Origin: Archaeoglobus sulfaticallidus PM70-1 | Lineage (GTDB): Archaea > Halobacteriota > Archaeoglobi > Archaeoglobales > Archaeoglobaceae | Length of the DNA stretch: 64,000 nucleotides | NCBI RefSeq assembly: GCF_000385565.1 | Contig: NC_021169.1 | Coordinates: forward strand, 1,160,571 to 1,224,570 | Direction: 5' to 3' | Shown here: piece by piece, positions 30,396 to 60,541 of the stretch | Position numbering within the stretch: the first letter of the stretch is position 1 | Layout: each line of letters starts with the position of its first letter | Notes under the pieces: generated by a model | Database searches by the model: none | Told to the model about the DNA's origin: nothing | What the model saw: the letters and a program-made list of their open reading frames with translations, nothing else | Made by a program: the position numbers and the translations under genes

Positions 30396-31149
30396 TCATT
30401 CACGGTGTACGATACGAGAGGAAATGGGGGTGTCCTTCCAATCCTAGGACACCTTGAATTAAGATGTAAAACTAACACCATCTTTCAATCCTACAGTCTG
30501 ATCATTCATGGTGTACGATACGAGAGGAAATATGGGGGTCAAAAAGAAACATGGGTAATCTTTTTACAGAGTGCTTGATACGAGAGGAAATGGGGGTGTC
30601 CTTCCAATCCTAGGACACCTTGAATTAAGATGTAAAACTAACACCATCTTTCAATCCTACAGTCTGATCATTCATGGTGTACGATACGAGAGGAAATATG
30701 GGGGTCAAAAAGAAACATGGGTAATCTTTTTACAGAGTGCTTGATACGAGAGGAAATGGGGGTGTCCTTCCAATCCTAGGACACCTTGAATTAAGATGTA
30801 AAACTAACACCATCTTTCAATCCTACAGTCTGATCATTCATGGAGTACGATACGAGAGGAAATATGGGGGTCAAAAAGAAACATGGGTAATCTTTTTACA
30901 GAGTGCTTGATACGAGAGGAAATGGGGGTGTCCTTCCAATCCTAGGACACCTTGAATTAAGATGTAAAACTAACACCATCTTTCAATCCTACAGTCTGAT
31001 CATTCATGGTGTACGATACGAGAGGAAATATGGGGGTCAAAAAGAAACATGGGTAATCTTTTTACAGAGTGCTTGATACGAGAGGAAATGGGGGTGTCCT
31101 TCCAATCCTAGGACACCTTGAATTAAGATGTAAAACTAACACCATCTTA
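30384..31149. repeat. 166-bp tandem repeat array with G-run iterons
   Basis: The word GATACGAGAGGAAATGGGGG recurs at 30411, 30577, 30743, 30909 and 31075, exactly 166 bases apart. A unit is module A (106 bases, beginning CCTACAGTCTGATCATTCA) plus module B (60 bases, beginning GATACGAGAGGAAATATG). The first unit lacks module B. Module A contains a hairpin with arms GGTGTCCT / AGGACACC. Copies are nearly identical (CACGG/CATGG/CATGGAG differences). The first copy contains the 3' end of the integrase gene. Each unit has two GAGAGGAAAT...GGGGG words, similar to archaeal origin recognition boxes. Confidence 0.92.
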
Positions 31150-32851: not shown

Positions 32852-33499
32852 TTAATTTAAATTCTCTTTCTTAAGACCTTTCATTTCTGCTCTGATCCCT
32901 TCTACCAGCTTTTCGATTACTTTGTCGATATTGTTGAGAACGTCGAAAAGGTTTCTGACCGGATCTAGATTTCTCAGATTCTTGCCATTGTTATACTTAC
33001 AGTCTGCAACGCAGAACCTGCAGGCGCTGTTAGGAATGATTGAACCCTCTTTAACTTCTTTAATATCTCTGAGCAGGCCCAGATATCGTTCGAGCAGGTA
33101 CCTCGCAATATCGGGAGCTATTTTGGTTACATTGCCTGTCCTCATTTCGGCCACGAAAACTGGCTTTCCGGTCATGTAGGCATAAGCAGCAGATTGTATG
33201 AGCTTGACCTTGCCAGTCTTGACTTCCACGATTGCAACAGGTACATTCTCACGCTTTATCCTTATATCCACGACCCCGTTTTTCAGGGTAATCTCAGCTT
33301 CAGCTTCAATTCCCACCTTTCTCAGCCTTGCCAGGATTATTGAAACTGCCAGGTTGTGGATTTCCTCGTAAATCTGCGATGGTTTCGAGTTATCTCGTTT
33401 GTACTTCGGACATATTTTTCTCACCAGGTTGTCAAGCCTGCTCGGGTTGCACACCTTCAACAGCCTGTCTATTTCAACATGTCTAACACGTACTTCCAT
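32852..33499 (-). CDS. Cas4-like PD-(D/E)XK nuclease with Cys cluster (copy 1)
   Basis: 215 residues. Nuclease core: GVVDIRIKRE ... VAIVEVKTGKVKLIQSAAY (Asp, then Glu-x-Lys, with the Gln/Tyr helix as in Cas4/RecB nucleases). Cysteines at C17 (VCNPSRLD) and C30 (KICPKYK) plus CRFCVADC near residue 170 could hold an Fe-S cluster as in Cas4. It aligns end to end with the protein at 37437. No cas1/cas2 or CRISPR nearby, so it is a solo Cas4-like protein. Divergent from a small AbrB protein with shared operator repeats. Confidence 0.75.
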   Translation of the reverse strand: MEVRVRHVEIDRLLKVCNPSRLDNLVRKICPKYKRDNSKPSQIYEEIHNLAVSIILARLRKVGIEAEAEITLKNGVVDIRIKRENVPVAIVEVKTGKVKLIQSAAYAYMTGKPVFVAEMRTGNVTKIAPDIARYLLERYLGLLRDIKEVKEGSIIPNSACRFCVADCKYNNGKNLRNLDPVRNLFDVLNNIDKVIEKLVEGIRAEMKGLKKENLN

Positions 33500-33512
33500 A
33501 CCTCATCACTCC

Positions 33513-33573
33513 TTACAAGTATTACATTTCTTACTTGTATTGGTAAAGTATTTAAGCTTTTCCTTACTTGTAA
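33513..33573. promoter_or_regulatory. Operator repeats between nuclease copy 1 and AbrB
   Basis: Three related 11-base words: TTACAAGTATT, TTACTTGTATT and TTACTTGTAAT, plus the TATA-like AAGTATTTAAG, between divergent starts at 33499 and 33581. The same set recurs at 38110-38175. Confidence 0.65.
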
Positions 33574-33580
33574 TACTGGT

Positions 33581-33730
33581 ATGGAAGAGAAGATACTTGG
33601 GTTGAGCAGCGTTACTCAGAAGTACCAGGTAACTCTGACAAAGGACGTCAGAGATGTTCTGGGAGTAAAACCTGGAGATAAGGTTGTATTTGTGCAAAAA
33701 GGTGATGCAGTTATTGTGAAAAAGGCGTGA
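33581..33730 (+). CDS. AbrB/MazE-like swapped-hairpin regulator (copy 1)
   Basis: 49 residues: EKILGLSSVTQKYQVTLTKD, then VRDVLGVKPGDKVVFVQKGD and VIVKKA, a complete AbrB-type DNA-binding domain. Start ATG at 33581; a longer upstream extension has no support. Partner and probable repressor of the divergent nuclease; could also act as an antitoxin. Nearly the same as the protein at 38182. Confidence 0.85.
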   Translation: MEEKILGLSSVTQKYQVTLTKDVRDVLGVKPGDKVVFVQKGDAVIVKKA

Positions 33731-34139
33731 TAATGTAAGTTACAGGTTAGGTAGATTTTTTTATCGATCACTCTTCAAAGTTGACAGTATGGTGCATTCA
33801 TGTATGTTTTAACCTGATGTTCTTAAGTTTCTTAGATCAGTTCTCACCTGCAAAATAAGGTCTATGTAATCAAATGAGGTGTAGGTTGTTTGAGTTAGAT
33901 TACTCAATGATACAGAGTAACCTCGGGATGTGAAAACCCTTCTGTATCATCAAATGAAACGAATCAACTTGCTCATGGAGATACATAAACTTGTATACAC
34001 AAACTTGTATACAATAAACTGTACGGAAACCACAACTTCCTCCATACTCCTTCTTTTTTAAAAAGGTGAGGGAGCTGGAGTTGAACTGGCTAAAATAGCC
34101 ATTCCTATTAATAGAGCCAGCTAACCTTACTAAAACAGC
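33731..34139. other. A/T-rich gap
   Basis: About 400 bases with no supported gene. Contains short direct repeats around 33990-34012 (ACAAACTTGTATACA-like words) and the hairpin GGCTA-AAA-TAGCC near 34088. A minus-strand frame here looks like chance. Confidence 0.4.
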
Positions 34140-34270
34140 CATCTACCCGTCCGCGATCCCAGGCGGATCGGGCCCATTCCCGCATTTTGCGGGACATTTC
34201 TCCGACACCTGGCCGGATCTTACTGCCACCACCCGGGTGGCTTAAACTATAGCCCACACTTGGTGGGATA
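34140..34270. ncRNA. GC-rich structured island, candidate non-coding RNA
   Basis: A sharply GC-rich stretch in A/T-rich surroundings, the classic mark of structured RNA in thermophiles. Visible hairpins: CCCGCA-TTT-TGCGGG (34180-34196 region), CCACC-ACCC-GGGTGG and GCCCAC-ACTTG-GTGGG, plus CCAGG..CCTGG bases that could close a larger helix. Not a tRNA: no consistent T-arm. No match to RNase P or SRP core motifs that I can see. Strand unknown. Confidence 0.4.
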
Positions 34271-34389
34271 CATCATACAAATTAATTCTTGTACTAACAT
34301 ACACATAACTTTAAAGTATTTAAAAATTTCGTCTACATACCCAACACCCTTTGTGAAGTGAAGACACAATGATGCTTTAAGTGAACCAC

Positions 34390-34638
34390 TTAGAGGCTGT
34401 GTGTCTTCTGCCACGTTCTATAAAAAGGGAATAAGTTCTGATAATTGCTTCTCAGCGAAATCTCCCGGTCACAGTTGCGGCATTTCAGCTTCTCCTTCTC
34501 AGACCACTCAGACCATTTTCTGTCTTTCACCCTCACGACCTTATTGGATCCAGGGCAAGGTCTGGGAGGTAAACTCCAAAAGACGTGAGAAAACAAACAA
34601 CGGACAAACAGTCTAAACCAGCTCAGCCACTTCTTCAA
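34390..34638 (-). CDS. Possible small Cys-containing protein
   Basis: 82 codons overlapping the end of the RHH gene by 26 bases on the same strand, with KLKCRNCDREISLRSNYQ near the C-terminus (CxxC). Composition is only partly protein-like. May be a shadow. Confidence 0.25.
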   Translation of the reverse strand: MKKWLSWFRLFVRCLFSHVFWSLPPRPCPGSNKVVRVKDRKWSEWSEKEKLKCRNCDREISLRSNYQNLFPFYRTWQKTHSL

Positions 34639-35185
34639 TTGCAGAGTTCAGCCTGGATTCAATATCCCTCGCAAGAGCTTTCTTCTTGTTTTTGTCTGTG
34701 AAGAACCCTTCCATCTCCCTGTACTCCTCAAAGAGCTTCTTTACTTCTTCCACCGTGGTGAGGATATTTTGAAGCTTTGACCTGTTCACCCTCACGAATT
34801 CTGTTCTTTCTCCCATCGCCTGCCTCTTCAGCTCTTCAAACTCCACAAGCGCTTTCATGAGCAGTTCGGCAGTATCCGGATCCAGAGGGAGTCTGCGTTT
34901 TTTTATCTTTCTGATCCTGGCTTCAATTCTTTTCACTGTGCTGAGTGTGGGGTCAGCAGCCTCAATCTCACGTGCCAGCTGGATGATGTCGTTTTTAAGA
35001 GCGAGTTGATTTGCAGTCGTGGTGTCGTGTACGGGTTTGCCCTTCTCAATCCTTCCAAGAATATCAAGCAAGTACTCTGACACCAGATGTGATATTGATT
35101 TACCGGTAGCCCGCCTGATTAAACCGGCTTTGTCAACGACTCTTTCATCGATGTAAAGTGACATCTTCCTGCTTTGCGCCATCAA
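34613..35185 (-). CDS. Ribbon-helix-helix DNA-binding protein with long helical tail
   Basis: 190 residues. Residues 7-45 (KMSLYIDERVVDKAGLIRRATGKSISHLVSEYL) are an RHH fold. The rest is basic/acidic helix with probable coiled coil. RHH proteins of this kind serve as plasmid copy-control, partition or antitoxin regulators. Two ATTACGTATA direct repeats lie 39-60 bases upstream. The large strand-asymmetric tract at 35890 lies further upstream. Confidence 0.7.
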   Translation of the reverse strand: MMAQSRKMSLYIDERVVDKAGLIRRATGKSISHLVSEYLLDILGRIEKGKPVHDTTTANQLALKNDIIQLAREIEAADPTLSTVKRIEARIRKIKKRRLPLDPDTAELLMKALVEFEELKRQAMGERTEFVRVNRSKLQNILTTVEEVKKLFEEYREMEGFFTDKNKKKALARDIESRLNSAIEEVAELV

Positions 35186-35223
35186 AACTAATGAGATCCA
35201 ACATCAGATAAATTTTTGGTCAC

Positions 35224-35244
35224 ATTACGTATAGATTACGTATA
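35224..35244. promoter_or_regulatory. Tandem operator before the RHH gene
   Basis: ATTACGTATA at 35224-35233 and again at 35235-35244, 11 bases apart, each with the palindromic core TACGTA. One helical turn spacing is typical for tandem RHH dimers, so likely autoregulation. Confidence 0.55.
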
Positions 35245-35889
35245 ATTCCGCAAAACTAACTCCGAGTATATCGCTTCTATGAAGCAATACAACCATAATA
35301 ACAGGTGTACACAATAGAGAAATTAGGACACGGAATATTTCCTACGCTAGCGCTTCTATGAAAATTATATTGCTTGTTTGAATGTGGTTAAAGAAATGCG
35401 CAATCAAAATACTGAGAGACATTTTAATATTTTCACGCTGAACAGCTTAATAAAATTTTATTTTAAAATTGGTAGCCTCGCATCGGATTTCGTGTTTTCC
35501 AACAACACCCAAAATCCAATAAGTAAAAATATATATTAGACTTTTATTGAGATATGCCCAAAATATTGATTTTGGAATTCTGACGGTTGTTCTCAAATAT
35601 TTTCGGTAAATAGCCGATCAGACAAAAATATCTCTCAAATGGACTGAAACTGTTGCTTCTGGACATGGTTTGGAGCGACGTGCTGCCTTCTAACCCATAT
35701 ACTTCGTAGGTATGCGTGCTCCATTTACGGATTTAAGGTCAGAGAATAGTTGGTAAAGCGTGAGGAGCTGTTTCCGGGCTTCTTTACCCCTTGAAAAGAA
35801 AGCCTCAGAATTTTTATTTTCACATGAAATATTTACGAGAGGGGAGATTGCGGTTGCCGCCATTTCGAAAGCATTTCCCATGCTTGCTG
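35245..35889. other. A/T-rich gap with a doubtful short ORF
   Basis: About 645 bases. CGCTTCTATGAA occurs twice (35273 and 35350 regions). A minus-strand frame 35690-35881 (63 codons, KEARKQLLTLYQLFSDLKS) is weakly protein-like and might be a remnant of a larger gene; I cannot assign it. Confidence 0.35.
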
Positions 35890-37260
35890 CTGCCTATTTT
35901 TGGTGACGGTGATGTTTGCCATATGGTTCTTGCTTTTGCCTTGTTTTGCCTTGGGCTTTAGGTTTTGGGTTTGGGTTTTGCCAAACCCTATCACTTTACA
36001 TTGTGCTGGTGATAAGTGGATATGGTAAGCATGTAACTGATCCTTGTACCATACTCACATTTACCATTCCCATTGCTTGCACCTCCATTCCCATTCATGC
36101 ATTTCCAGTGCCTTACAGCTTGCATTTCCAGTGCTTCATTGTATGCATTTCCAGCGCTATTATTGCATGCTTTTTCCATTCCCAGTGCTTCCTTGCTTGC
36201 ATTTCCATTCATGCATTTCCATTCCAGCTTATCTTTTCCAGTGCCTTACAGCTTGCATTTTCATTGCTTAATTGCTTGCATTCCCAGTGCTCCATTACTT
36301 CATTGCTTGCATTTCTATTTCCATTCATGCATTTCCATTGCTCATTGCTTGCATTTCCATTGCTAGATAGCATTTCCATTCTCATCCCAGCTTACCATTC
36401 CCATTGCTTGCTCCAGTGCCCGCTTCCAGTCTTACCATTCTCAGTGCTTAAGCTGGTTCCATTCCTACCCTTTCCAGATGCTTACCATTCCCATTCAAGC
36501 TTACCAGTCCAGTGCCTTGCATTCCCAGTGCTTGCGTGAGTCCATTTATTCATTCCCGGCATAGCCTAATCATTCCATGTACATTCCCGAGCCTAACTGC
36601 TCCATTCCAATTTATCCAATCCATTGCTTTAGCCATTCACCATTTCCAACCATTCAATTTGCCAAATCTTCATTCTCATTACCATTCCATTGCTTTATCC
36701 ATTCCAGCGCAGTGCCTTACCTATATTGCTTCTACCGTCCATCCCTATTCCAGCTTACCATCCAGTCCCATTGCTTCTGCTTACCATTCCTCTCCATTGC
36801 TTTATCTATCCATCATTCCCATTCCCAGTGGCTAACCGCTCAGGTCTCATTCCAGTCATTTTCAGTCATCTTATTTCTTTCCTGATCCCATTCCTAGTTG
36901 CTATTCCACTGCCTTTTGTTGCCCAAGCAATTCCCTCCACAACAACCCCATTGCCCAATAACTCACACCAGACATTTGCCTTACCAACTACTGAAACCCC
37001 ACAATTGCCAACATACACAACAACAATCATCTACCAACCAGAAATTCCTGCCATGGATTAGAGGTTTTACACTGTATTCAGCTATCTTTCACCTGTATTC
37101 AGCTGCTGATTGCTTTTACCAGCCAGCTTACCATTCCCAGCCTTACTACCACCATTGCTTATGCAGCTTAAGCCTTTTTGCCACTTGAGTCTTTCTGCTG
37201 CTTATTCTATTCACAATTCTCAGCCTAATTTCCACCCTTCCCAGTGCCTTACCCCCTATT
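35890..37260. repeat. 1.35-kb strand-asymmetric low-complexity tract
   Basis: The plus strand is dominated by C/T-rich words such as CATTTCCAGTGC, GCTTGCATTTCCATT and GCTTACCATTCCCA, repeated dozens of times with irregular 15-25 base spacing; the minus strand is correspondingly purine/G-rich (GGAATGGTAAGC). Long plus-strand open frames here (e.g. 35916-36539) are Cys/Phe/His/Ser-rich nonsense and are not genes. No fixed period and no spacers, so not CRISPR. Role unknown. Confidence 0.8.
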
Positions 37261-37436
37261 TTTTTAGAGGGCGGCGGCTCGCTCGAGAACGGCTATGCGA
37301 CCAGCTACGCGTAGAGAGTCATGTGGTGAAAAGGACTTCAACATATACTCAACTTTGTCTGGATTCCCCGCAAGGATGAATTAATTTTATAAAAATCAGA
37401 AAGGTAGATTCAATGTGCAAAAACACTGGACAGACT

Positions 37437-38102
37437 TTAATTATTCCTCTCTTTCATATCCTGCCTTCCTCTGTCGATTCTCTCCATCTCCATTCTCAAA
37501 CCTTCTATAAGCCTGTCAACGACCACATTTATGTTGTCCAGCATCTTCAGCATATTCCTCACCGGATCTGCACCTTTCAGGTTTCTGCCATTCCCGTAGC
37601 TGCAGTTTGCGGTGCAGTACCTGCATCCCGGGTTGGGGATGACTTTATCCCCTCTAACCTCCTTTATGTCCTTCAGAACGCCGATAAACAGTTCCACCAG
37701 CCTTGTCGCCACATCTGGTGTTAGTTTTGTGACCCTTCCACTTTTGGTTTCCACTATGAAGACGGGCTTTCCAGTTATGTGTGCATAGACTGCGGACTGT
37801 ATGAGCTTCACCTTGCCCGTCTTTACCTCAACTACTGCTATTATCTCGCCTCTGTACTTCACCACTATGTCCACAACCCCATACTCAATGGCTATCTCTC
37901 CCTCTGCCTCTATGCCTGCCGCCCTGAGCCTCGTCAATATCATCACCACCGCCATATTGTGTATTTCTTCATAGAGCAAAGATGGTGCTGATCTGTCGGC
38001 TTTGTATCCTGGGCATATCTTTCTCACCAGACTGTCCAGCCTGCTCGGGCTGCATACCTGCAGCAACTTCTCAATATCTCCATTTCTAACAGGTGCATCC
38101 AT
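37437..38102 (-). CDS. Cas4-like PD-(D/E)XK nuclease with Cys cluster (copy 2)
   Basis: 221 residues, paralog of the protein at 32852 over its full length: VCSPSRLDSLVRKICPGYK, GVVDIVVKYR ... IAVVEVKTGKVKLIQSAVY and CRYCTANC are all kept, followed by the shared NGRNLKGADPVRNML. Conserved nuclease and Cys residues in both copies suggest both are under selection. Divergent from AbrB copy 2. Confidence 0.75.
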   Translation of the reverse strand: MDAPVRNGDIEKLLQVCSPSRLDSLVRKICPGYKADRSAPSLLYEEIHNMAVVMILTRLRAAGIEAEGEIAIEYGVVDIVVKYRGEIIAVVEVKTGKVKLIQSAVYAHITGKPVFIVETKSGRVTKLTPDVATRLVELFIGVLKDIKEVRGDKVIPNPGCRYCTANCSYGNGRNLKGADPVRNMLKMLDNINVVVDRLIEGLRMEMERIDRGRQDMKERNN

Positions 38103-38109
38103 TTCAATA

Positions 38110-38175
38110 CCTCCTTATTTGTATTACATTTCTTACTTGTATTGAGAAATATTTAAATTTTTCCTTACTTGTATT
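38110..38175. promoter_or_regulatory. Operator repeats between nuclease copy 2 and AbrB
   Basis: TTATTTGTATT, TTACTTGTATT and TTACTTGTATT with TATA-like AAATATTTAAAT between, in the same order and spacing as at 33513. Conservation of these words while the rest differs supports function. Confidence 0.65.
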
Positions 38176-38181
38176 ACTCGT

Positions 38182-38331
38182 ATGGAGGAAAGAATACTGG
38201 GACTTAGCAATGTCACTAAAAAATTCCAAGTGACCCTAACAAAGGATGTGAGAGATATCCTGGGAGTAAATGCCGGAGACAAGATCGTGTTCGTTATCAA
38301 GGATGGGGAAGTCATTGTAAGAAAAGCGTAA
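38182..38331 (+). CDS. AbrB/MazE-like regulator (copy 2)
   Basis: 49 residues, ERILGLSNVTKKFQVTLTKD and ILGVNAGDKIVFVIKDGE; same length and start as copy 1 at 33581. Probable repressor/partner of nuclease copy 2. Confidence 0.85.
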   Translation: MEERILGLSNVTKKFQVTLTKDVRDILGVNAGDKIVFVIKDGEVIVRKA

Positions 38332-43461: not shown

Positions 43462-44574
43462 ATGAGAGTTAAATTCCTCACACTACTGTTTCTAAGCCTG
43501 CTTGTTCTCGGCTGTGCAGAAGAGGGCAAGATTTCCATCCAGACTCCAACACCCACCCCCACACCTGCAATAACCCCAATGCACACGCCAACCCCGCAAC
43601 ATACGCCAACGCAGATGCCTGCTACAACTCCAACCCCGATGCACACACCTCACATGACTCCGACAGCTACTCCCTCTCTCACTCCCTGGCAGCCTTCAGA
43701 GACCCCAACACCCTTCAAACTTGAATACGGAGTAAAATACAAGGTCAAGGTCGTGGAAGTCGTCGATGGCGATACAATAGACGTGATCATGCCCGACGGA
43801 AAAGAAGAGCGAGTCAGGATGCTGGGAATCGACACACCTGAAACAGCAGCTTCGAAAAACAAGCCCTACGAGTACGATGACATAACCAATCTTTCGTGCT
43901 TGGCCTACTGGGGTTTGATGGCCAAGCAGTACACCGAATCTAAGCTGGAAGGCAAGTACATTTACATCGAGCTCGACCCGATAGCGAGAATGAGAGGATA
44001 TTATGGGCGTTTGCTGGCCTATATTTACTACGACAGCACAGACTTCACTGCTGAGCTCGTAAAGCAGGGCTATGCTAGGGTTTACACCGAGGGGAACTTT
44101 GAGAGAGAATCGGAATACGTGGCATATCAGAGTACTGCGATGGAGAACAGTGTAGGGCTTTGGACTTGCAGTGTTGAGGTCGCCTCCACGCCAACACTGA
44201 CTCCTGCTTCAACGCCAACACCCACACCAACTAATACTGCTTCAACAGCAACTGTGGACTTCTATTACATCCACTACGACGCTGCAGGAAACGACCAATA
44301 CAACCTGAACGATGAGTATGTTGTGATCGCGAATAACGGAGCAGCATCCATCAACCTGCAGGGATGGGTGCTGCAAGATGAGGCTGGGCACACCTACGTC
44401 TTCCCGAGCTATACCTTCGGACCTGGAGAGGTTGTGTACGTGCACACGGGGAGCGGCACGGATACGGCTGGCCACCTCTACTGGGGATCGGACAGGGCGA
44501 TTTGGAACAATGATGGAGATACTGCCTACCTATTTGACGCTGCAGGGAATCTGACAGATGTGGTGAGCTGGTGA
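43462..44574 (+). CDS. Lipoprotein with thermonuclease and lamin-tail domains
   Basis: 370 residues: signal peptide with lipobox LVLGC; a long Thr/Pro/His linker (about 28-88); a staphylococcal nuclease domain (VEVVDGDTIDV, RVRMLGIDTPET, GRLLAYIYYD) with the Asp/Arg/Glu catalytic set visible; a second Thr/Pro linker; and a C-terminal lamin-tail (LTD) domain (NDEYVVIANNGAASINLQGW, GPGEVVYVHTGSGTD). An extracellular DNA/RNA nuclease held on the envelope. It ends one base before an integrase remnant. Confidence 0.88.
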   Translation: MRVKFLTLLFLSLLVLGCAEEGKISIQTPTPTPTPAITPMHTPTPQHTPTQMPATTPTPMHTPHMTPTATPSLTPWQPSETPTPFKLEYGVKYKVKVVEVVDGDTIDVIMPDGKEERVRMLGIDTPETAASKNKPYEYDDITNLSCLAYWGLMAKQYTESKLEGKYIYIELDPIARMRGYYGRLLAYIYYDSTDFTAELVKQGYARVYTEGNFERESEYVAYQSTAMENSVGLWTCSVEVASTPTLTPASTPTPTPTNTASTATVDFYYIHYDAAGNDQYNLNDEYVVIANNGAASINLQGWVLQDEAGHTYVFPSYTFGPGEVVYVHTGSGTDTAGHLYWGSDRAIWNNDGDTAYLFDAAGNLTDVVSW

Positions 44575-46383: not shown

Positions 46384-46444
46384 GTTCACAAACTATGAAC
46401 AAAAAGTTCATAAATCATGAACTACAGGTTCATAAATCATGAAC
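46384..46444. promoter_or_regulatory. Triple palindromic operator overlapping the MNT start
   Basis: GTTCACAAACTATGAAC at 46384-46400, GTTCATAAATCATGAAC at 46406-46422 and again at 46428-46444: spacing exactly 22 bases, two helical turns. The third copy contains the ATG at 46439. Strong candidate for autorepression by the HTH domain of the next protein. Confidence 0.75.
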
Positions 46445-46984
46445 ATATGGAAAATTCTTTCCAGCAGGGAGAGGATAGAAACCCTAGAATTCATTCTGGA
46501 AAGAGAAGCGGTTGGTGTAGAAGAGGTTGCAACTTCTCTACGGAGGAGCAAGGGTTTTGTTTCACAGTTTCTCAGATTACTTGAAGAGGAGGGAATTCTG
46601 AGAAAGCAGAAGAGAAAATATGCAGTTCTTCACGAAGCTCCGGAAGTGAGAGCAATCAAAATTATGCTCAACATAACAAAACTGCAAACATCACTTGTTA
46701 AACACCGAGAGGAATGGATAGTGAGCCTTGGAGTTTATGGGAGCTTTTCAAAAGGAGAAAACAGAGAGGATAGCGATATTGACATCTGGATTAGAGTTGA
46801 TAGTCATCCAGGAGAGAAGGAGGTTGCAAGAATTGAAAGGGAACTCTCAAATGAGCTTGGAAAACGGGTGCATATCCTGATACTCACTCCCGAAAGGATT
46901 GCACGGCTCAGGGAGAACGATCCAATCTTCTACTGCGAGCTTGCGAACTCTTTTGTTATGTGGGGTGAGGGGGTTGGATTTTGA
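46439..46984 (+). CDS. HTH-nucleotidyltransferase (MNT) antitoxin
   Basis: 181 residues. Winged helix at about residues 20-65 (GVEEVATSLRRSKGFVSQFLRLLEEEGIL) fused to a nucleotidyltransferase with GSFSKGENREDSDIDIW (GSX10DXD). Antitoxin of a HEPN/MNT pair with its own DNA-binding head. The start lies in a triple operator. The stop overlaps the HEPN TTG start by TTGA. Confidence 0.85.
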   Translation: MNIWKILSSRERIETLEFILEREAVGVEEVATSLRRSKGFVSQFLRLLEEEGILRKQKRKYAVLHEAPEVRAIKIMLNITKLQTSLVKHREEWIVSLGVYGSFSKGENREDSDIDIWIRVDSHPGEKEVARIERELSNELGKRVHILILTPERIARLRENDPIFYCELANSFVMWGEGVGF

Positions 46985-47421
46985 GAACTTTGGATTTTGA
47001 GAGCTGTGTGAGAAAAAGATTGTTGAGGAGAGTAACTCCATCTGCTGATAAGGCCAGACAGAGCATGAAGAGGGCTGAAAGATGGCTTGAGGAAGCTGAA
47101 AAGAGTCTGAACAATGAGCTTTATGATAGTTGCCTGATATCATCCTATCTTGCGATGTTCCATTCAGCAAGAGCTGTGTTATACAGGGATGGGTGGAGAG
47201 AGAAGAGCCATTTCTGTATTGCCAGATATCTTGAAGAAATGTATGTTAAAAAGGGCAAACTTGAAAGGGAGTGGGTCGATCTGCTCGACAGGCTGAGGGA
47301 AACGAGGCATGCAGACCAGTACGATGTATCCTACTTCGCAACCAGAGAAGAGGCAGAATCTGCACTGAATATCGCATTTGAGTTTGTTGAAAGAATGGAG
47401 AAACTCTTGGAAGAATTTTAG
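46981..47421 (+). CDS. HEPN-domain RNase toxin
   Basis: 146 residues from TTG 46981. HEPN helices with SCLISSYLAMFHSARAVLY and the active-site region LRETRHADQYDVSY. Partner of the HTH-MNT gene with which it overlaps by four bases. Confidence 0.85.
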   Translation: MRTLDFESCVRKRLLRRVTPSADKARQSMKRAERWLEEAEKSLNNELYDSCLISSYLAMFHSARAVLYRDGWREKSHFCIARYLEEMYVKKGKLEREWVDLLDRLRETRHADQYDVSYFATREEAESALNIAFEFVERMEKLLEEF

Positions 47422-49742: not shown

Positions 49743-50483
49743 ATGCCAGCAACCCAGATCGTTTTTGTAGGCCATCATAAAGAGAGGATTGTTGAGTCCA
49801 TCAGGGCTCTTAGGGAACTACCCACTTCAAAGATCATTCTCTTCATGGGTGAAGAGGAACTTCCCGGCGAAAAAAAGGCAAGAGAGACTGTTTACGAACT
49901 GAAAAAGGAGCTGGAAGTGGTTTGGGAAGTTGAAGTTGCCAGGATTGACAAGAGGAATGTTATAAGGGCTGCAATGCAGCTGATAGACATCATAAAGCGG
50001 GAGAAAGCTGAAGGGAATGATGTTATTATCAACGCTTCCGGCTCTCTGAGAACTCTTGCAGTAGCTGGCTACATTGCTGCCTGTGTGACCTCATCGAGGA
50101 TATTCACATCAATTCCAAGATACAATGAGAAAGAGGAAGAGATAGGAATTGAGGAGGTCATAGAGATCCCGACCCTGCCTGTTGAGTTCCCTGTTGAGGA
50201 GCAGATCGAGATTCTCAGGGCAATTGGGGAGGGTGTGAACTCTCTTGATGAGGTGATATTCAGACTGAACCCCGGCATGGAGAAGGGAAGTGAGAAGTTC
50301 AAAAAGGAGAGGAGCAGGGTCAGCCACCACATCTCAAAGCTTGAGAAGGCTGGGGCTGTAATCAAGGTGAAGAGTGGGAGGAACGTTAGAATAATCCTTA
50401 CTCCTTTAGGCAGGTTTCTGGTGGGGGGTGCAGATGGGGATGGAGTTGGTGGAGAGAAGGCTGTTCTCGGAGAAGCATATTGA
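49743..50483 (+). CDS. Csa3-like CARF-winged-helix regulator
   Basis: 246 residues. N-terminal CARF domain: IVFVGHHKERIVESIRAL, and the ligand-loop region VIINASGSLRTLAVAGYIAA. C-terminal winged helix from about 160: EEQIEILRAIGEGVNSLDEV, RVSHHISKLEKAGAVIKV. Csa3 proteins sense cyclic oligoadenylates and control CRISPR genes; here no CRISPR is near. First gene of an operon with a small protein, RmuC and a beta-CASP nuclease, and likely regulator of the shared promoter. Confidence 0.82.
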   Translation: MPATQIVFVGHHKERIVESIRALRELPTSKIILFMGEEELPGEKKARETVYELKKELEVVWEVEVARIDKRNVIRAAMQLIDIIKREKAEGNDVIINASGSLRTLAVAGYIAACVTSSRIFTSIPRYNEKEEEIGIEEVIEIPTLPVEFPVEEQIEILRAIGEGVNSLDEVIFRLNPGMEKGSEKFKKERSRVSHHISKLEKAGAVIKVKSGRNVRIILTPLGRFLVGGADGDGVGGEKAVLGEAY

Positions 50484-50679
50484 GGAGGCATCAAATGTTT
50501 ACGAAATTGATTTCAGATTCAACACAGCCTATGCTGGGAAATCCAATCACCTTAACAGGATGGATCATCCCTGCGAGTTTAAAGGAGCAGGTTTCAGAGT
50601 CTTTTTGCTTCCAAAAGCTGCAGAGAAGGTTGAAAACAGAATAATTGAAAAAGAATCCAAAACACAATTAAGAGATTAG
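50440..50679 (+). CDS. Small protein in the CARF operon
   Basis: About 79 residues from ATG 50440, nine bases after GGGGGGTG; it overlaps the end of the regulator in another frame. LVERRLFSEKHIEEASNVYE and GAGFRVFLLPKAAEKVENRI; no family recognised. Another frame of the same DNA is also somewhat protein-like, so the call is uncertain. Confidence 0.45.
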   Translation: MELVERRLFSEKHIEEASNVYEIDFRFNTAYAGKSNHLNRMDHPCEFKGAGFRVFLLPKAAEKVENRIIEKESKTQLRD

Positions 50680-50696
50680 TTTGGGGGGTGTTATTG

Positions 50697-51716
50697 GTGG
50701 ATTATGTAACCGCTATCCTCTCTTTGCTTGTGCTTGTTCTTGCGGTCTATATCATCCTCAGACAGAGGGGGACCGAAAGAAGTCTTGCAGATTTTAAGGT
50801 TAAAATTGAGGAACTGAACCAGAGCGTCCCTCTCTGGGTTGAGGGGGCGGTGGCAAAGACCTTTCAGAGCTCCTCAAGTGTCTTTGAGAACATATTCTCA
50901 TCAGCAATAGCAAGAAATGCCGATGTCATAAAGGGGGCGTTTGCCACATCACTGAAAGAGCTCGGCATTCAGGAGGATCTTGGCAAATTAAAGGAAGCTT
51001 CATCCGACCTGAAGGGCATTACTTCGGATTTGAAATCGATGTTCCAGGTTAAACAGGCAAGAGCGAAGTTCGGAGAACTTCAGCTTGAGATGCTTTTGAA
51101 GGACATATTTCCATCGAAAAGGCTCAATTTTCAGAAAAATATCGGTGCTGGAATTCCAGATGCATGCATTCTTGTTGAAGAAGGCAGGTACCTCTGCATA
51201 GACTCAAAATTCCCTCTGGAGAATTTCAGGAAATACAGCGAAGCTGAAAATGCTGAGGAAAAGAGCAAATACTGGAATGAATTTCTAAGAGATGTCAGAA
51301 AGCATATTGAAGAAATAAAAGGGAAGTACGTTGGAAAGGAAAACACTCTTGACTTTGCATTCATGTTCGTCCCTTCAGATGTAATATTCTACCATATTGT
51401 TTCCGAATCACCTGAAATTGCTGTTGAGGCGTCCAAATCAGGAGTTATCCTTGCTTCACCGTCTGTCCTGCCAGCATATCTGAATCTGGTATCGGCGAGA
51501 ATAAAAGCTGAAGAGATATCGGAGAGAGCTGAAGAAATTCAGAGAAAGATGGATTTAATGGGCGGCTACATAGATGAGCTCGGTTCGAGACTTGAGACTT
51601 TATTCAGACATATAAACAATGCCTACAACAATGTTTCGAGAGTTCAGCAGTCCTACACGGATTTGAGGGGATATTACTCAACTATTTCGAATTTTGATGT
51701 TGAGGTGGGAGAGTGA
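50697..51716 (+). CDS. rmuC: RmuC-family DNA recombination nuclease
   Basis: About 339 residues. N-terminal membrane helix (AILSLLVLVLAVYIIL), a coiled coil, and the RmuC domain: GIPDACILVEEGRYLCIDSKFPLENF (the Asp/Glu-x-Lys-type core), then FAFMFVPSDVIFY. RmuC proteins limit recombination between short repeats and are PD-(D/E)XK-related. GGGGGTG six bases before GTG 50697 fixes the start. Overlaps the beta-CASP gene by four bases. Confidence 0.85.
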   Translation: MDYVTAILSLLVLVLAVYIILRQRGTERSLADFKVKIEELNQSVPLWVEGAVAKTFQSSSSVFENIFSSAIARNADVIKGAFATSLKELGIQEDLGKLKEASSDLKGITSDLKSMFQVKQARAKFGELQLEMLLKDIFPSKRLNFQKNIGAGIPDACILVEEGRYLCIDSKFPLENFRKYSEAENAEEKSKYWNEFLRDVRKHIEEIKGKYVGKENTLDFAFMFVPSDVIFYHIVSESPEIAVEASKSGVILASPSVLPAYLNLVSARIKAEEISERAEEIQRKMDLMGGYIDELGSRLETLFRHINNAYNNVSRVQQSYTDLRGYYSTISNFDVEVGE

Positions 51717-53254
51717 AAATTACTGTTTTTGATGGTGCCACAACTATAGGTGGGAACAAGATTTATGTTGAGGAGAATGGTAAGGGGGTGTTTTTTGATT
51801 TTGGAATGAATTTTGCCAGATACAGCAGGTATTTTGCAGAGTTTCTGAACGAGAGGAGCACGAGAGGGATACATGATCTGCTCTACCTCAATCTCATACC
51901 AAAGCTGAACATCTACCGTTCAGACCTGATACCCTCAGACCTCGACATGTCTATCTATCCTAAACTAAACGTGGAGGCTGTTCTGCTGAGCCACGCCCAT
52001 GTTGACCACTGCGGGAACATATCTCTGCTCGATGAAAGCATACCCGTCATGGCATCTCCTATGACTATGGCGATCCTGAAGGCCATGAGGGATGTCTCGG
52101 CATCGGGAATTGGCTCCGAGATTGCCTATTTCTCGTGCAGAGAGCCGGTAGGCGATGGGAGGGTGCTTTCGTCGATCAAATCCAAGTTCTATAAAGGTAG
52201 GGACTTCATCTGCACTGGCGGAATACCTGATGAGCTCGCCAAATTTATGTGCTATAAACCAGGACAGGAAAGTAAAAATGCTAGGAAGAAGCTCAACCCC
52301 GGAAACATCTGTCACGTAAACGATCACAACCTCTCCTTCGACATCGATGTCTACGAGGTCGACCATTCCATTTACGGTGCTACAGCATACATCCTGTGGG
52401 GCGATTCAGCCATAGCTTACACCGGCGACATCAGGATGCACGGGAAGTATGCAGACAGATCGAAGGAGTTCATTAAAAGGGCGAAGGGTGCGTCAGTTCT
52501 AATCATCGAGGGGACGAGAGCGAGCAGGAATGAGGATGTTAACGAGTCTGAAGATACTGTCTTTGAGAACTGCCTGAAGGCTGTCGAGGAGTCAGAAGGT
52601 GTTGTTGTGGCTGATTTTTCACCAAGAAACTTTGAGAGGCTTGAGACATTCATCGAGATTGCAGGGAGAACTTCAAGAGAGCTTGTTGTAACAGCCAAGG
52701 ATGCGTACATGCTCCATGCGATGGAATGTGCCGATGGTGTGCGCAGAATTGAGGATGTGAGGATCTACCATGAGCTGAGAGACAGAAAAAACAAGTGGGA
52801 AGAAATCGTTGTCAGAGGAAAATGGGAAGATAGGTATGTTGATCCCAGCGACATTTCCAGTAATCCGGAGAACTACATCCTTTGCTTTTCATTCTACGAC
52901 ATGAAGCATTTGCTGGACATTAAGCCTGATGGTGGGGCTTATATCTATTCGTCGAGTGAGGCATTCAGCGAGGAGCAGGAGTTCGACTTCCTCAGGCTTT
53001 ACAACTGGCTGCAGGAGTTTGGGTTGAGAGTTTACGGATTTGAGATGGTGCTGGATAATGGCAGGCTGGTCCCAAGTTTCATCAGAGGTTTTCATGCTTC
53101 CGGGCATGCGTCGAAGGGTGATTTGAGGTGGGTGATCGAGCAGATTGATCCTGATGTTATAATCCCCGTCCATACTGAAAATTCGGTATGGTTTGAGGAG
53201 AACTTTGAGAATGTGGTGGTGTTAAAAGATGGTGAAACCATCGAGGTTAACTGA
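51713..53254 (+). CDS. Beta-CASP metallo-beta-lactamase-fold nuclease
   Basis: 513 residues. MBL motifs: LLSHAHVDHCG (motif II), VDHSIYGATAY, TGDIRMHGK (motif IV), and late HASGHAS and PVHTE, as in beta-CASP RNases related to RNase J. Likely an RNA or DNA nuclease. Last gene of the CARF-RmuC operon; GTG start overlaps rmuC. Confidence 0.8.
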   Translation: MKITVFDGATTIGGNKIYVEENGKGVFFDFGMNFARYSRYFAEFLNERSTRGIHDLLYLNLIPKLNIYRSDLIPSDLDMSIYPKLNVEAVLLSHAHVDHCGNISLLDESIPVMASPMTMAILKAMRDVSASGIGSEIAYFSCREPVGDGRVLSSIKSKFYKGRDFICTGGIPDELAKFMCYKPGQESKNARKKLNPGNICHVNDHNLSFDIDVYEVDHSIYGATAYILWGDSAIAYTGDIRMHGKYADRSKEFIKRAKGASVLIIEGTRASRNEDVNESEDTVFENCLKAVEESEGVVVADFSPRNFERLETFIEIAGRTSRELVVTAKDAYMLHAMECADGVRRIEDVRIYHELRDRKNKWEEIVVRGKWEDRYVDPSDISSNPENYILCFSFYDMKHLLDIKPDGGAYIYSSSEAFSEEQEFDFLRLYNWLQEFGLRVYGFEMVLDNGRLVPSFIRGFHASGHASKGDLRWVIEQIDPDVIIPVHTENSVWFEENFENVVVLKDGETIEVN

Positions 53255-53313
53255 GGCGCTATTTGGAATCTCATCCGATATAGTTATTTATCTGGAGATT
53301 ACCTGCCGTTTTC

Positions 53314-54179
53314 TTGAAAAAAAGAGAAACGATGTGGATGCGTTCAGAGATGTTAGAGCTTTATTACTCTGATGCGAAGGGTGAAGAGGTTTTGCTTAAA
53401 ATATATAGGAAGTTAGGAGGAGATTTGCAGAAAATCCAGATTATGAGGAGCTTCTCGCTACAGTGTGCTCTGAAACTGGATCGTTCTATCTTGATTTAGG
53501 ATATGAAAGGGCTGAAAAATTCTTGCTCGAAACTTTCAACCTAAGAAGCAAGCTCTATGGTTCTGAAAGAGCATTTTTACTAGTTAACACGATGAACAGG
53601 CTCGGAATATAATACATCAGAATGAAACACCCAAAAAAGCAGAGATCATGCTTGAAGATGCTTACACAATAATGAGGGAGCTTTACGAAAAAGACCCCCT
53701 CTACAGGGAAGATTTTGCAATTATGGCGTTAAATTTTGGAACTTTTTACTACGAAGCCTACAGGCTCAAGGAGACTTTAAGGTATCTAAGAAAAGCGCTG
53801 GAACACAGAGATGTTCCCCCTATGTAAAGTGCAGTGGCTTACTACAACATGGCTCTGGTTTACGAGGATCTAGGAGAGCCGGATAAGACGGAAGAAATAT
53901 TTTAAGTCTGCATGTATTGAATTTCTTGATATAGCTGGGATTGTTAGCATACCAGAGGTTTTGCGAAGAGCCTATCGGTTAAATGGAGATCTGGACTTAT
54001 ACGCGTTTTACATTGGATATTTGGTCTCTACTGGTCTGATGGATTATGAAGGTGCAAAAATAGACCTTGCGGGATTAAATCTGAAAAAATGTTAAAATTT
54101 GCTGGATGTTTTAGATCTGGATGATATAGATAAGGTTAAAAAATGTGTTAGAAAGCTTCAGTATGAGTTTAATTTCTAA
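53314..54179 (+). pseudogene. TPR protein, multiply broken
   Basis: Readable pieces in three frames: EELLATVCSETGSFYLDLGY, AEIMLEDAYTIMRELYEKDP, ALNFGTFYYEAYRLKETL, AVAYYNMALVYEDLGEPDKT, and a final [14 protein letters not shown] to TAA 54177. These are tetratricopeptide repeats. At least four frameshifts or stops (e.g. TAA near 53610, 53825, 53905), so truly decayed. Confidence 0.6.
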
Positions 54180-54202
54180 TGTGGTGGAAAGAGGTGTTAA
54201 TA

Positions 54203-56707
54203 ATGGATCTTGAAAATTTATTGAGGAAGTATAAATTAAGTGAGGAGAAATTGGCAACTTGGAGAAAAATACTAGACGATGTGAAAAATAAATTAATAGA
54301 AGAACTCGAAGAATTAAAGGACAGTGATTATGAACGTGGCTGGAAAGATGTTTTAAAGTTGCTCAAAGAAATTGAATACATAGAAACAGGATTTTTTGCA
54401 AATCTATCCCAAGCTTTGAAAAATGAGAGTACAAGAGAGGCTATTGTTGAATTTATTAAGAACATCGAAACATCAGATACTAAGGATTTCGCTTATGACC
54501 TTTTTAAACGAGGCAACATTAAAAATGCAAAGGTGACAGTAATTTCGACTTTAGCACATGTTTTGAAACCTAACTGGTTTATACCGCTGAATCACAGGAT
54601 ATCAAAGGCCGTAAAGAGTTTGGATCTCACAAAACTTCACCTTGCGAATACAAAGAACTTTGAAGAAGCAGTTAATGTATTTCAACAAATTTTAAAGAAA
54701 GAGAGAGATCTCGTTAGAGCTTCTTATGCATTATATAGCAGCATCAAGAAACCTAGATATTGGCAAATTGCTCCAGGAGAGAATGCTAGATTTTGGGAGT
54801 TGTGCGTTGACAAAAATATAATCTGCGTCGGATGGAGAAAGATTGTCGAAAAACTGGGAGAGAGACTTTTCGAATTCAGCGATTATAGTTCATTTAGTGA
54901 GGTAATGAAGAACGAGTTCAAGGAACCCCATCAGAGTTATCATCAATTGTGGAAATTCTTGAAGGAGGTATCTAAAGGCGACATTATTATCTCAAACAGA
55001 GGGAGAAAGAGTATTATTGGTATTGGTATAATTGAGTCAAACCCAGAAATTGGTCTGGAATTAGAGTATCCAATTTTTAGAAGGGTGAAATGGCATAAGA
55101 CAGATCTCGATGTACCAATCCCTGAAAACCTAAAAGGAAAATTTGGAGGCACAATTTATGAGCTGAGCGAAGGAGATCTTAAAAAGCTTGGGATAAAGGA
55201 TTTGATTGAAGAAATATTGAATAAAATTCCTGAGGAGACGAATTTTGTATTCGATGAACTTAATAAAATCCTGAACTCCAAAAAACAGGTAATCCTCTAC
55301 GGCCCGCCAGGCACTGGAAAAACTTGGCTTGCTAAAAACTTCGTGGATGAAAATGCTCCAGAAACTTACAAGATTGCAAAAAAAGATGTTCTGGAAAATG
55401 TAAAGTTTTTCTGGTGGTCAATAAACCCACGCAAATGGGATTACACTCAACTTGAGGAAGGTAAAGGCATAGAATTGTGGTATGGACAATGGAAGAGAGC
55501 TTTTGAAGAAATAAGCGATGGAGATATAGTTTTCGTTTATGTAGGTGGCAAAGTTGGAAGGATATATGCTGTCGGAACATACGAGGAAAAAGACGGAAAG
55601 CCCCATGTAAAAGTTCAGAAAATCTTTGATGGCCCTAGCTGGAAAGATCTTAAAGAAGACTCAGTTCTTGGAAATTCTATTCCAGTAAGAATGGGTGCCA
55701 GAGGAACTTTATTTCCACTTGATCCAGATGAAGGTTTGAGGATTCTCGAATTATCTAACTTAAATCTGGACGAACTCGGCTTGAGTATTGAAGAGTCTTA
55801 CGAAAAAGTCGAGACTGTAAGAATCGTCACATTTCATCCCTCTTATGCCTACGAAGAGTTTATTGAGGGGCTAAAACCCGAAACGGACAATGAAAGTAGA
55901 ATCCTTTATAAAGTCGAAGAGGGCATCTTCAAAGGGATTTGCAGAGATGCCCATAATGCCTTGCTCAACCATGCGGGTGTTGAAAAAGAGTGGAGAGTTG
56001 GAGAAAACCTGCCTACACTTACAGAAGATGAACTCAGTAAGGTGGGGAGTTCCTTAAACAACGCTCCTAAGTTCTTCCTCATAATCGATGAGATAAACAG
56101 AGGTGATATTTCAAGAATCTTCGGCGAACTCATAACGCTACTCGAACCAGATAAAAGACTATTTGCAGAGAATGAGCTGATAGTCTCACTGCCATACTCA
56201 AAGACCAAGTTTGGCATCCCACCCAACCTCTACATAATCGGCACAATGAACACCGCAGACAGAAGCATCGCTTTGATAGATGTCGCCTTAAGAAGGAGAT
56301 TCGGATTCATCGAACTGATGCCAGACTATGAGGTTTTGGAAAAAGAGCTGATGAATGATGAAGACGAAGCTGGAGATATCAAAGAACTTGCAATTAGCGT
56401 CCTTAAAGCTTTAAATGAGAGGATCAAAAGGCTATATGATAGAGACCACCAGATAGGGCACAGCTATTTCCTGAAGTTGAAGAGTTGCGATTCAAAAGAT
56501 GATGCAATTGAAATGCTGAAGCAGATCTGGTACTACGAGATTCTCCCACTGCTCCAGGAGTACTTCTACGACAGTCCAGAAAAGCTTAGAGATGTCCTAA
56601 ACGGAAAGTTCGTAGAAGTTGGGGAGAACTATTTCGATTTTAGAGAGGAGAAAGACTTCGTCGGAGCTCTCGAAGAGGTTGCAAAGCCCAAAACGGAAGA
56701 GGGGTAA
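54203..56707 (+). CDS. mcrB: McrB-type GTPase of a McrBC restriction system
   Basis: About 834 residues from ATG 54203, preceded by GAGGTG (an upstream ATG at 54179 lacks a ribosome site). Two PUA/EVE-like regions ([34 protein letters not shown]) that may read modified bases, and an AAA+ GTPase: [55 protein letters not shown]. Works with McrC to cut modified DNA. The Walker A is separated from the rest by the inserted EVE-like region, an unusual arrangement. Confidence 0.88.
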
Positions 56708-56709
56708 CA

Positions 56710-58023
56710 TTGAGAGACACTATAACTCTTTTAGAGTACGACTCAGTTGAATACGAAATCGTTGACACCGAAGAAGAGGGCTACGATGAATCAGAGAAAA
56801 AGCTCTACATGTCCGAGAAAACAATGCTTCAGCTTGAGAGACTGAACAGAGAGCAGAAGTTCGTTGAAATATATAGAGGAAGGATAAAGGCTCTGAACTA
56901 CGCAGGAGTTGCCAAGGTTGGTAGCATTAAGATAGAAATTATACCAAAGTTCCTGATAGGGAAGGATTCAGAAGAAATTAAACCAAAAGTGATGAGTAAT
57001 TTACTTCAAATGCTAAGATATACTCGTAGATTAAACATTAGGAAAGTAGAGTTTGCTGAGTTAGATTTTAAGAGTGACTTCTTCGAGGTCTTTGTGCATC
57101 TATTCGCTAAGAACCTCCTTAATCTCCTTAAGGTCAAGCATGACAGGGGCTATGTGAGGCGGTATGATGAACTGAGGTTCGTGAAGGAGAGAATAGACAC
57201 AAGAAAGTACGGTGCAAATCCGGCAAAGCTGCATAGAATCCCGTGCATATATCACGAGAGGTCGATGGACACCCCAATAAACAGGACATTGAAGTACACA
57301 AGTTACCTGATGTTGAGGCTGGTAAGGAGCAGGGAGAACTACAGACTTTTGAAGCAGATAATTTCAATCCTCGATCCGGTCGAGCTGACTCCTGTAAGCC
57401 CGGATCTGGTAAAGAGGATAAGCTTCAGCAGACTCAACGCAGAATTTGAACCTTTTATAAACTTCTGCTGGTTGTTCCTTCGTGGATGCTCTCTAACTCT
57501 TCAGGCGTCGAATGTCGAGTTCTTCTCGTTAATGATTCCTATGGAGAGGTTATTTGAGGAGTTCATAGGCGAGGTAATCAGGGATAATCCCCGAATAGTT
57601 CCTGAGAATGTGAGGGGTAGCATTCTAATCCAGAAAAGAATTGGACACTTGGCCACTAAAAATGGCAAGAGGAAGTTTGAGCTCAGACCCGATATAAGGA
57701 TAGAAGGTGTGGGGAAAGCAATAGTAGACACCAAGTATAAGCTGCTCAGTTTAGAGGAGAGAAATTACGGAGTTTCACAACAGGATCTGTACCAGATGTA
57801 CGCCTACTGTAAAGAGTCAGATACCACGAAGTGCCTGCTGATCTATCCTGAGGGTCTTAACGGCAAGATAGAAAGCCGATGGAGACTCGGAAAAGATGAA
57901 GATATTGAACTTCATGTAAAAACAGTTTCGCTCATCCACGATCTAACCTCCAAAAATGGCTGGTCAGAATTTATTGGAGAACTTGAAGAGACACTACGTT
58001 GTTTGAGTGAAGATGATGCCTGA
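56710..58023 (+). CDS. mcrC: McrC nuclease subunit
   Basis: 437 residues from TTG 56710. N-terminal McrC region and C-terminal PD-(D/E)XK nuclease: ELRPDIRIEGVGKAIVDTKYK and QQDLYQMYAYC. Two bases after mcrB. Provides the cutting activity of the GTP-dependent McrBC complex. Confidence 0.9.
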   Translation: MRDTITLLEYDSVEYEIVDTEEEGYDESEKKLYMSEKTMLQLERLNREQKFVEIYRGRIKALNYAGVAKVGSIKIEIIPKFLIGKDSEEIKPKVMSNLLQMLRYTRRLNIRKVEFAELDFKSDFFEVFVHLFAKNLLNLLKVKHDRGYVRRYDELRFVKERIDTRKYGANPAKLHRIPCIYHERSMDTPINRTLKYTSYLMLRLVRSRENYRLLKQIISILDPVELTPVSPDLVKRISFSRLNAEFEPFINFCWLFLRGCSLTLQASNVEFFSLMIPMERLFEEFIGEVIRDNPRIVPENVRGSILIQKRIGHLATKNGKRKFELRPDIRIEGVGKAIVDTKYKLLSLEERNYGVSQQDLYQMYAYCKESDTTKCLLIYPEGLNGKIESRWRLGKDEDIELHVKTVSLIHDLTSKNGWSEFIGELEETLRCLSEDDA

Positions 58024-58058
58024 AAAATTACGATTTAAGTTGTACCACTTGAGAAATA

Positions 58059-58148
58059 ATGGAAATTCTTGCATCGAAGAACATCCCACTGCAGTACGAT
58101 GACGAAGATCTGAAAGAGGATATTGAAACACTGGAGAAGCTGTTATGA
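58059..58148 (+). pseudogene. Antitoxin fragment
   Basis: 29 codons MEILASKNIPLQYDDEDLKE..., resembling the C-terminal end of UPF0175-type antitoxins. TGA overlaps the ATG of the next stub. Truncated. Confidence 0.4.
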
Positions 58149-58282: not shown

Positions 58283-58291
58283 TCTTTAAAA

Positions 58292-58330: not shown

Positions 58331-58332
58331 CA

Positions 58333-60492: not shown

Positions 60493-60502
60493 GTAATTAG
60501 TT

Positions 60503-60540: not shown

Positions 60541-60541
60541 C

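What the first reader, a model, noticed from the sequence alone, without database searches (positions are those of the whole stretch)
32852..38331. Two paralogous Cas4-like nuclease/AbrB modules with conserved operators
Nuclease copies at 32852 and 37437 and AbrB copies at 33581 and 38182 share sequence over their full lengths, the same divergent layout, and the same set of TTACTTGTAtt words with a TATA box between them. Catalytic and Cys residues are kept in both. No cas1, cas2 or CRISPR is near. A nuclease held by a dedicated AbrB protein looks like a toxin-antitoxin or defence unit.
Basis: partly seen in the sequence, partly recalled or inferred. Interest (0 to 1): 0.72.

Follow-up and report, generated by a model that had tools for sequence, protein, structure and literature searches.

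The report
Cas4-like nucleases under dedicated AbrB repressors
This heat-loving archaeon carries two copies of a mobile-element-type DNA-cutting enzyme, each placed back to back with a tiny DNA-binding protein that probably keeps it switched off, and relatives in other species keep the same wiring while using different switch proteins.

Summary
Two modules in the Archaeoglobus sulfaticallidus chromosome each pair a Cas4-like nuclease (58% identical between copies) with a divergent 49-aa AbrB protein (73%). Both share an 80-bp promoter in which CTTACTTGTA words bracket one TATA box. That word occurs at four places in the whole genome, two per module. The promoter is more conserved (80%) than synonymous sites (16-24%).

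The nuclease belongs to a small family found here only in Archaeoglobaceae (11 of 393 phylum genomes). It keeps the Cas4 residues: four Cys, D-ExK, QxxxY.

New here: this AbrB family is not beside the nuclease elsewhere, but the wiring is conserved. In 7 of 10 other loci the nuclease is divergent from a different 48-55-aa regulator (DUF2080-type or another MazE/AbrB-type), usually with its own repeated words around the TATA box. Several homologues are followed by an IS6-like transposase or a serine recombinase. Conversely, relatives of this AbrB sit beside unrelated genes with a similar promoter.

Best reading: a mobile-element Cas4-type nuclease held off by an exchangeable, autoregulating AbrB-type repressor. 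A classic type II toxin-antitoxin is disfavoured (divergent genes, no antitoxin tail) but not excluded. The genome's own CRISPR cas4-cas1 is a separate locus about 50 kb away.

The parts
32852..33499 (-). nuclease 1, Cas4-like PD-(D/E)xK with four Cys, 215 aa
   Evidence: no Pfam hit of its own
33500..33580 (.). shared divergent promoter, module 1
   Evidence: 80% identical to the module 2 promoter; geometry
33513..33521 (.). operator word I (TTACAAGTA, the inverted form), directly 5' of the nuclease Shine-Dalgarno
33531..33539 (.). operator word II (TTACTTGTA)
33549..33556 (.). TATA box TATTTAAG, placed to serve both divergent genes
   Evidence: 24 nt before the AbrB ATG
33564..33572 (.). operator word III (TTACTTGTA)
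33581..33730 (+). AbrB 1, 49 aa
   Evidence: PF04014 E 4e-8; TIGR01439
37437..38102 (-). nuclease 2, Cas4-like, 221 aa
   Evidence: PADLOC Cas4 E 5e-7; TIGR00372 cas4 E 2e-6, below its cut-off
38103..38181 (.). shared divergent promoter, module 2
38115..38123 (.). operator word I (TTATTTGTA)
38133..38141 (.). operator word II (TTACTTGTA)
38150..38157 (.). TATA box TATTTAAA
38165..38173 (.). operator word III (TTACTTGTA)
38182..38331 (+). AbrB 2, 49 aa
   Evidence: PF04014 E 2e-6; TIGR01439

Best explanation
Each module is a mobile-element-type Cas4-like DNA nuclease held silent by a dedicated, self-regulating AbrB-fold repressor. Shown: the two genes diverge from one TATA box, and that box is bracketed by copies of a word found nowhere else in the genome. 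Inferred: an AbrB dimer sits on TACTTGTA-type words next to both transcription starts, so AbrB limits its own (nearly leaderless) transcript and, through one extra site beside the Shine-Dalgarno, represses the nuclease more tightly. Because both copies use the same word, the two AbrBs probably cross-regulate. When AbrB runs low (element activation, entry into a new cell, stress) the nuclease is made and trims or cuts DNA with a PD-(D/E)xK site and an Fe-S cluster. Across the family the nuclease stays while the regulator and its operator word are exchanged. The most likely use is in the life cycle of integrated or transposing elements; host defence is a secondary possibility.
For: Operator words: 4 in the window against 0.03 expected, and 4 in the genome, all in the two promoters. 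Promoter 80% identical while synonymous sites differ by 0.76-0.84 and pN is 0.14-0.25. TATA and word geometry nearly identical in both copies. Cas4 residues invariant in 9 homologues: C30, H48, D78, E92, K94, Q102, Y106, C160, C163, C167. Divergent small regulators at 7 of 10 other loci with repeated words in most of the promoters, spacing 34-36 bp against 32-33 bp here where the repeat is direct. Relatives of this AbrB sit beside other genes with a similar promoter. IS6-like transposase beside homologues, serine recombinase beside others, tyrosine integrase 2.5 kb from module 1. A 2.8-kb regulator-nuclease-transposase unit is 94% identical in two MAGs where the similarity ends at the regulator stop codon.
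Against: No binding, expression or nuclease data. No close relative with an intact AbrB-nuclease pair outside this genome; the two closest outside relatives are fragments (L004, L014). No terminal inverted repeats found on the transposase-linked unit. Three homologues (L006, L010, L013) have no small divergent regulator. The DUF2080-type regulators could not be linked to AbrB by profile comparison. The structure model is only partly confident and its PDB matches are weak.
Confidence: 0.6

Rival explanations
1. A classic type II toxin-antitoxin pair: the nuclease is a toxin that AbrB neutralises by direct contact, and the complex represses the promoter.
For: AbrB/MazE and DUF2080 families both include antitoxins of nuclease toxins (PMC2701414; PMC10440598). 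Dedicated small partner in 9 of 12 loci including the window. Other toxin-antitoxin-like genes lie in the same window: a PIN gene and a nucleotidyltransferase gene.
Against: Divergent genes instead of one operon. AbrB is 49 aa with the DNA-binding domain over residues 11-48, leaving no toxin-binding tail. Regulator types differ between loci, and relatives of each regulator sit beside other genes. Three homologues lack a partner.
Confidence: 0.13
2. A host-beneficial solo-Cas4 (defence or DNA repair) whose AbrB regulator is merely its transcription factor; no mobile-element function.
For: Solo-Cas4 is common in archaea and suspected of defence or repair roles (PMC5704561). McrB/McrC-like genes and a DNA methyltransferase lie 16-25 kb downstream (read from the ORFs); purifying selection.
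Against: Patchy distribution, 11 of 59 Archaeoglobi genomes, degraded copies (L004, L014), transposase and recombinase neighbours.
Confidence: 0.2
3. An auxiliary Cas4 for CRISPR spacer acquisition by the array about 50 kb upstream.
For: Cas4-like residues; CRISPR array and cas1 on the same chromosome.
Against: The CRISPR locus has its own cas4 next to cas1; the family does not sit beside cas genes in the loci examined.
Confidence: 0.04

Closest known systems
Cas4 family nucleases, solo-Cas4 and MGE-Cas4 (PMC5704561)
   Same: PD-(D/E)xK site, QxxxY and four Cys; no adjacent cas1/cas2; linked to mobile elements
   Different: Too diverged to reach the Pfam or NCBIfam Cas4 cut-offs; found here only in Archaeoglobaceae; paired with a divergent AbrB-type regulator, a pairing on which a term search of PMC5704561 for AbrB, toxin and Archaeoglobus found nothing
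C68 of Sulfolobus plasmid-virus pSSVx (PMC5569661)
   Different: C68's partner is a CopG-like regulator, not a nuclease; different word
Sso7c4, archaeal SpoVT-AbrB protein (PDB 5itm, 5itj, 2l66; PMC5222340)
   Same: About 50-aa swapped-hairpin dimer; the conserved Q14 and R22 line up with the invariant Q16 and R24 here (residue ranges)
   Different: Described as a chromosomal protein; no dedicated operator or nuclease partner known to me
DUF2080 transposase-associated proteins; SpnP2/DUF2080 antitoxin (PMC10440598)
   Same: The same kind of small protein is the divergent partner of the nuclease at L012 (NF033496) and probably at L061-L064
   Different: In the published pair DUF2080 neutralises a nuclease toxin; the window uses AbrB instead
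MazEF / AbrB-PIN toxin-antitoxin pairs
   Same: AbrB/MazE-type DNA-binding domain beside a nuclease
   Different: Those are co-directional operons with RNA-targeting toxins and a toxin-binding tail (established knowledge of the families)

Membership tests
Cas4 nuclease family | D-(E)xK catalytic residues and QxxxY motif | tested here: met
   D78, E92, K94, Q102, Y106 invariant in 9 homologues
Cas4 nuclease family | One N-terminal and three C-terminal Cys for an Fe-S cluster | tested here: met
   C30, C160, C163, C167 invariant; the cluster itself cannot be tested
Cas4 nuclease family | Score above a curated Cas4 model cut-off | tested here: not met
   TIGR00372 28 bits against 65; no Pfam hit; nuclease 1 matches no Cas4 model. 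Filed as Cas4-like, not Cas4
Cas4 nuclease family | Overall fold | tested here: inconclusive
   Core model confident; best PDB matches include Hjc resolvase, Cas4-family ACE1 and SSO0001, none with E below 0.001
CRISPR-associated Cas4 | Adjacent to cas1/cas2 | tested here: not met
   The genome's cas4-cas1 is a separate locus
AbrB/SpoVT swapped-hairpin regulators | Above-threshold AbrB domain | tested here: met
   PF04014 33.6 and 28.3 bits against 24.7; TIGR01439 above cut-off
Type II toxin-antitoxin | Two genes in one operon | tested here: not met
   Divergent genes
Type II toxin-antitoxin | Antitoxin has a toxin-binding region beyond its DNA-binding domain | tested here: not met
   49 aa, domain covers 11-48; binding through the domain itself is not excluded
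Type II toxin-antitoxin | Nuclease toxic, partner neutralises it | not testable with these tools
   Needs expression assays
Type II toxin-antitoxin | Conserved pairing across genomes | tested here: inconclusive
   Same AbrB family only in this genome; a divergent small regulator at 7 of 10 other loci

The most novel reading that the evidence does not exclude
A previously undescribed addiction or defence module in which a Cas4-type DNA nuclease is the killing or restricting component and is silenced only at transcription by interchangeable AbrB/DUF2080-type repressors, so that entry of the unit into a cell lacking the repressor, or loss of the repressor, unleashes the nuclease.
Probability: 0.2. 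Interest if true: 0.72.

Novelty: new variant of a known kind. Interest (0 to 1): 0.5.

Why it matters
What solo-Cas4 and mobile-element Cas4 proteins do is open. A Cas4-like lineage that keeps a dedicated divergent repressor, while the type of repressor changes, suggests that uncontrolled nuclease is costly and gives a simple handle on it: the operator words define when it is made. It also offers a natural set for studying how AbrB-fold proteins change DNA specificity, since each regulator appears with its own operator word.

Tried and rejected
Close-relative scans of viral contigs and genome contigs with the window nucleases found nothing; the one productive genome-contig scan returned only Archaeoglobi. 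Family alignment too diverged for pattern scans. Structure of the DUF2080-type regulator: pLDDT 54, unusable. Profile comparison AbrB against DUF2080-type: no support; AbrB against the L003/L011 type: only marginal, E 0.006, although L011's regulator passes PF04014. DUF2080-type PDB search: only short or unrelated matches. The 166-bp tandem array was considered as a CRISPR array and rejected: identical units, no varying spacers. CRISPR spacers against the modules: only 14-15-nt chance matches. Terminal inverted repeats of the transposase-linked unit: none. dN/dS: synonymous sites saturated, no ratio quoted. Nuclease tree: most inner forks weak, so the number of regulator exchanges cannot be counted.
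Full report
OBSERVATION. The window is G000:C1:1160571-1224570 of a single 2,076,931-bp chromosome, the published size of Archaeoglobus sulfaticallidus PM70-1 (PMC3703591). Identity is 58% between nucleases and 73% between AbrBs. CTTACTTGTAW occurs 4 times in the window against 0.03 expected, and at those 4 places only in the genome, with 1 hit for the reversed control.

PROMOTER. The intergenic regions are 80% identical (65/81), against 63% (nuclease) and 70% (AbrB) in the coding DNA and about 46% in the flanks. Synonymous difference is 0.76 and 0.84, so it is saturated, while pN is 0.25 and 0.14. The promoter is therefore constrained. Each copy has three words and one TATA box, 24 nt before the AbrB ATG. 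That position predicts a nearly leaderless AbrB transcript and a short nuclease leader carrying a Shine-Dalgarno (GGAG or GGAGG), with word I directly next to it (sequence). Words II and III lie on either side of the TATA box, 32-33 bp apart. That this is autorepression and nuclease repression is inference.

NUCLEASE. Nuclease 2 matches Cas4 models weakly (PADLOC E 5e-7; TIGR00372 E 2e-6, below cut-off); nuclease 1 matches none. An alignment of nine homologues keeps C30, H48, D78, E92, K94, Q102, Y106, C160, C163 and C167 invariant, the Cas4 signature by established knowledge of that family. A six-sequence AlphaFold model has a confident core and an uncertain Cys region. Its best PDB matches include PD-(D/E)xK enzymes, Hjc and Cas4-family proteins among them, all with E above 0.001.

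DISTRIBUTION. Homologues occur in 11 of 59 genomes of the class and 11 of 393 of the phylum, all in the same family, with a single query and with a profile. The closest outside relatives are fragments, L004 (G024) and L014 (G031).

NEIGHBOURS OF THE HOMOLOGUES. No relative of the window AbrB lies near any homologue. Instead, seven of ten other loci have a different small protein encoded divergently 70-98 bp upstream. L061-L064 share a 48-52-aa protein that matches DUF2080 members only moderately (E 3e-4 to 3e-2). L012 has a clear DUF2080 protein (NF033496 E 4e-18). L003 and L011 share a 55-aa MazE/AbrB-type protein (L011 above the PF04014 cut-off, L003 below it). L006, L010 and L013 have none. 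With the window, 9 of 12 nuclease genes have such a partner. The regulator profiles were built from these same loci, so their match scores there are not independent evidence; the positional pattern is. No null model was run for the adjacency.

OPERATOR WORDS ELSEWHERE. The best repeat in each intergenic region was compared with 100 dinucleotide shuffles. Shuffles reaching it: win2 0, L061 0, L062 0, L011 0 (an inverted repeat around the TATA box), L063 1, L012 1, L003 3, win1 4, L064 13. So L064 is not beyond chance by this test. Words differ between regulator types. L061-L063 and L003 have direct repeats 34-36 bp apart.

AbrB ELSEWHERE. Relatives of the window AbrB at 50-61% identity lie beside unrelated genes. 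L017, L018, L020 and L023 share with module 1 the stretch AAAGTATTTAA, followed within a few bases by a TTAC word. The AbrB with its promoter thus looks like a regulatory cassette used with different cargo. Its PDB relatives are Sso7c4 and SpoVT.

MOBILE-ELEMENT LINK. L005, L007, L008 and L012 have a downstream SWIM-DDE transposase ORF, tested on L064, which is the L005 locus: IS6 family, above its cut-off. L011 has what reads as a decayed one. L009 and L013 have a serine recombinase (tested on L013). A 2.8-kb unit in L061 and L062 is 94% identical, starts at the regulator stop codon and has no similarity further left; no terminal inverted repeats were found. In the window a tyrosine integrase (Pfam Phage_integrase) ends 2.5 kb before module 1. 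L054 has a nuclease homologue, an SNase-LTD gene and an integrase-like gene, as does the window.

CRISPR. The genome has a 62-repeat array with its own cas4 and cas1 about 50 kb upstream. No spacer matches the modules beyond short chance matches.

MECHANISM AND RIVALS. The best reading is a mobile-element-type Cas4-like nuclease silenced by an autoregulating, exchangeable AbrB-type repressor (0.6). Layout, operator words and conservation are shown; repression, nuclease activity and the physiological role are inferred. A type II toxin-antitoxin is disfavoured by divergent genes and by the missing antitoxin tail, but AbrB/MazE and DUF2080 proteins are antitoxins of nuclease toxins elsewhere (PMC2701414, PMC10440598), so it stays open. 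C68 of pSSVx, a tail-less AbrB-like protein binding between its gene and a divergent gene, is the nearest described analogue in layout (PMC5569661). Three literature searches for Cas4 with AbrB listed no title or abstract describing such a pair; only some of those papers were opened and most subscription journals are not held.

Noticed in passing
window 30411-31148: 4.4 copies of a 166-bp tandem repeat (99%) right after the tyrosine integrase gene; each full unit holds CTTTCAATCCTACAGTCTGAT, which shares 14 + 7 nt with the genome's own CRISPR repeat CTTTCAATCCTACAATAGTCTGATTTTAAC.
   Followed up: partly
window 35900-37260: C- and T-rich, G-poor degenerate repeat tract of CATTCCCATTGCTTGC / GCATTTCCA words next to the 3' end of nuclease 2; looks non-coding.
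   Followed up: partly
G000:C1:1137981-1150555 (L073): CRISPR array of 62 repeats followed by cas4, cas1 and what read as further cas genes, about 43-56 kb before module 1.
   Followed up: partly
window 43462-44574: Staphylococcal-nuclease plus lamin-tail-domain protein; a homologue lies beside a nuclease-family member in L054 with an integrase-like gene.
   Followed up: partly
window 46439-47421: Nucleotidyltransferase gene and next ORF, read as an MNT-HEPN pair, 83% and 91% identical to a pair 6-7 kb from a nuclease homologue in L058.
   Followed up: no
window 49743-63025: Possible defence island: RmuC, and by reading only McrB- and McrC-like genes (54179-58023), a C5 DNA methyltransferase (61101-62285) and a DNA-glycosylase-like gene (62036-63025).
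   Followed up: no
L061, L062, L064: Regulator-nuclease-transposase unit with an IS6-type SWIM-DDE transposase; a Cas4-like gene travelling with a transposase may deserve its own study.
   Followed up: partly
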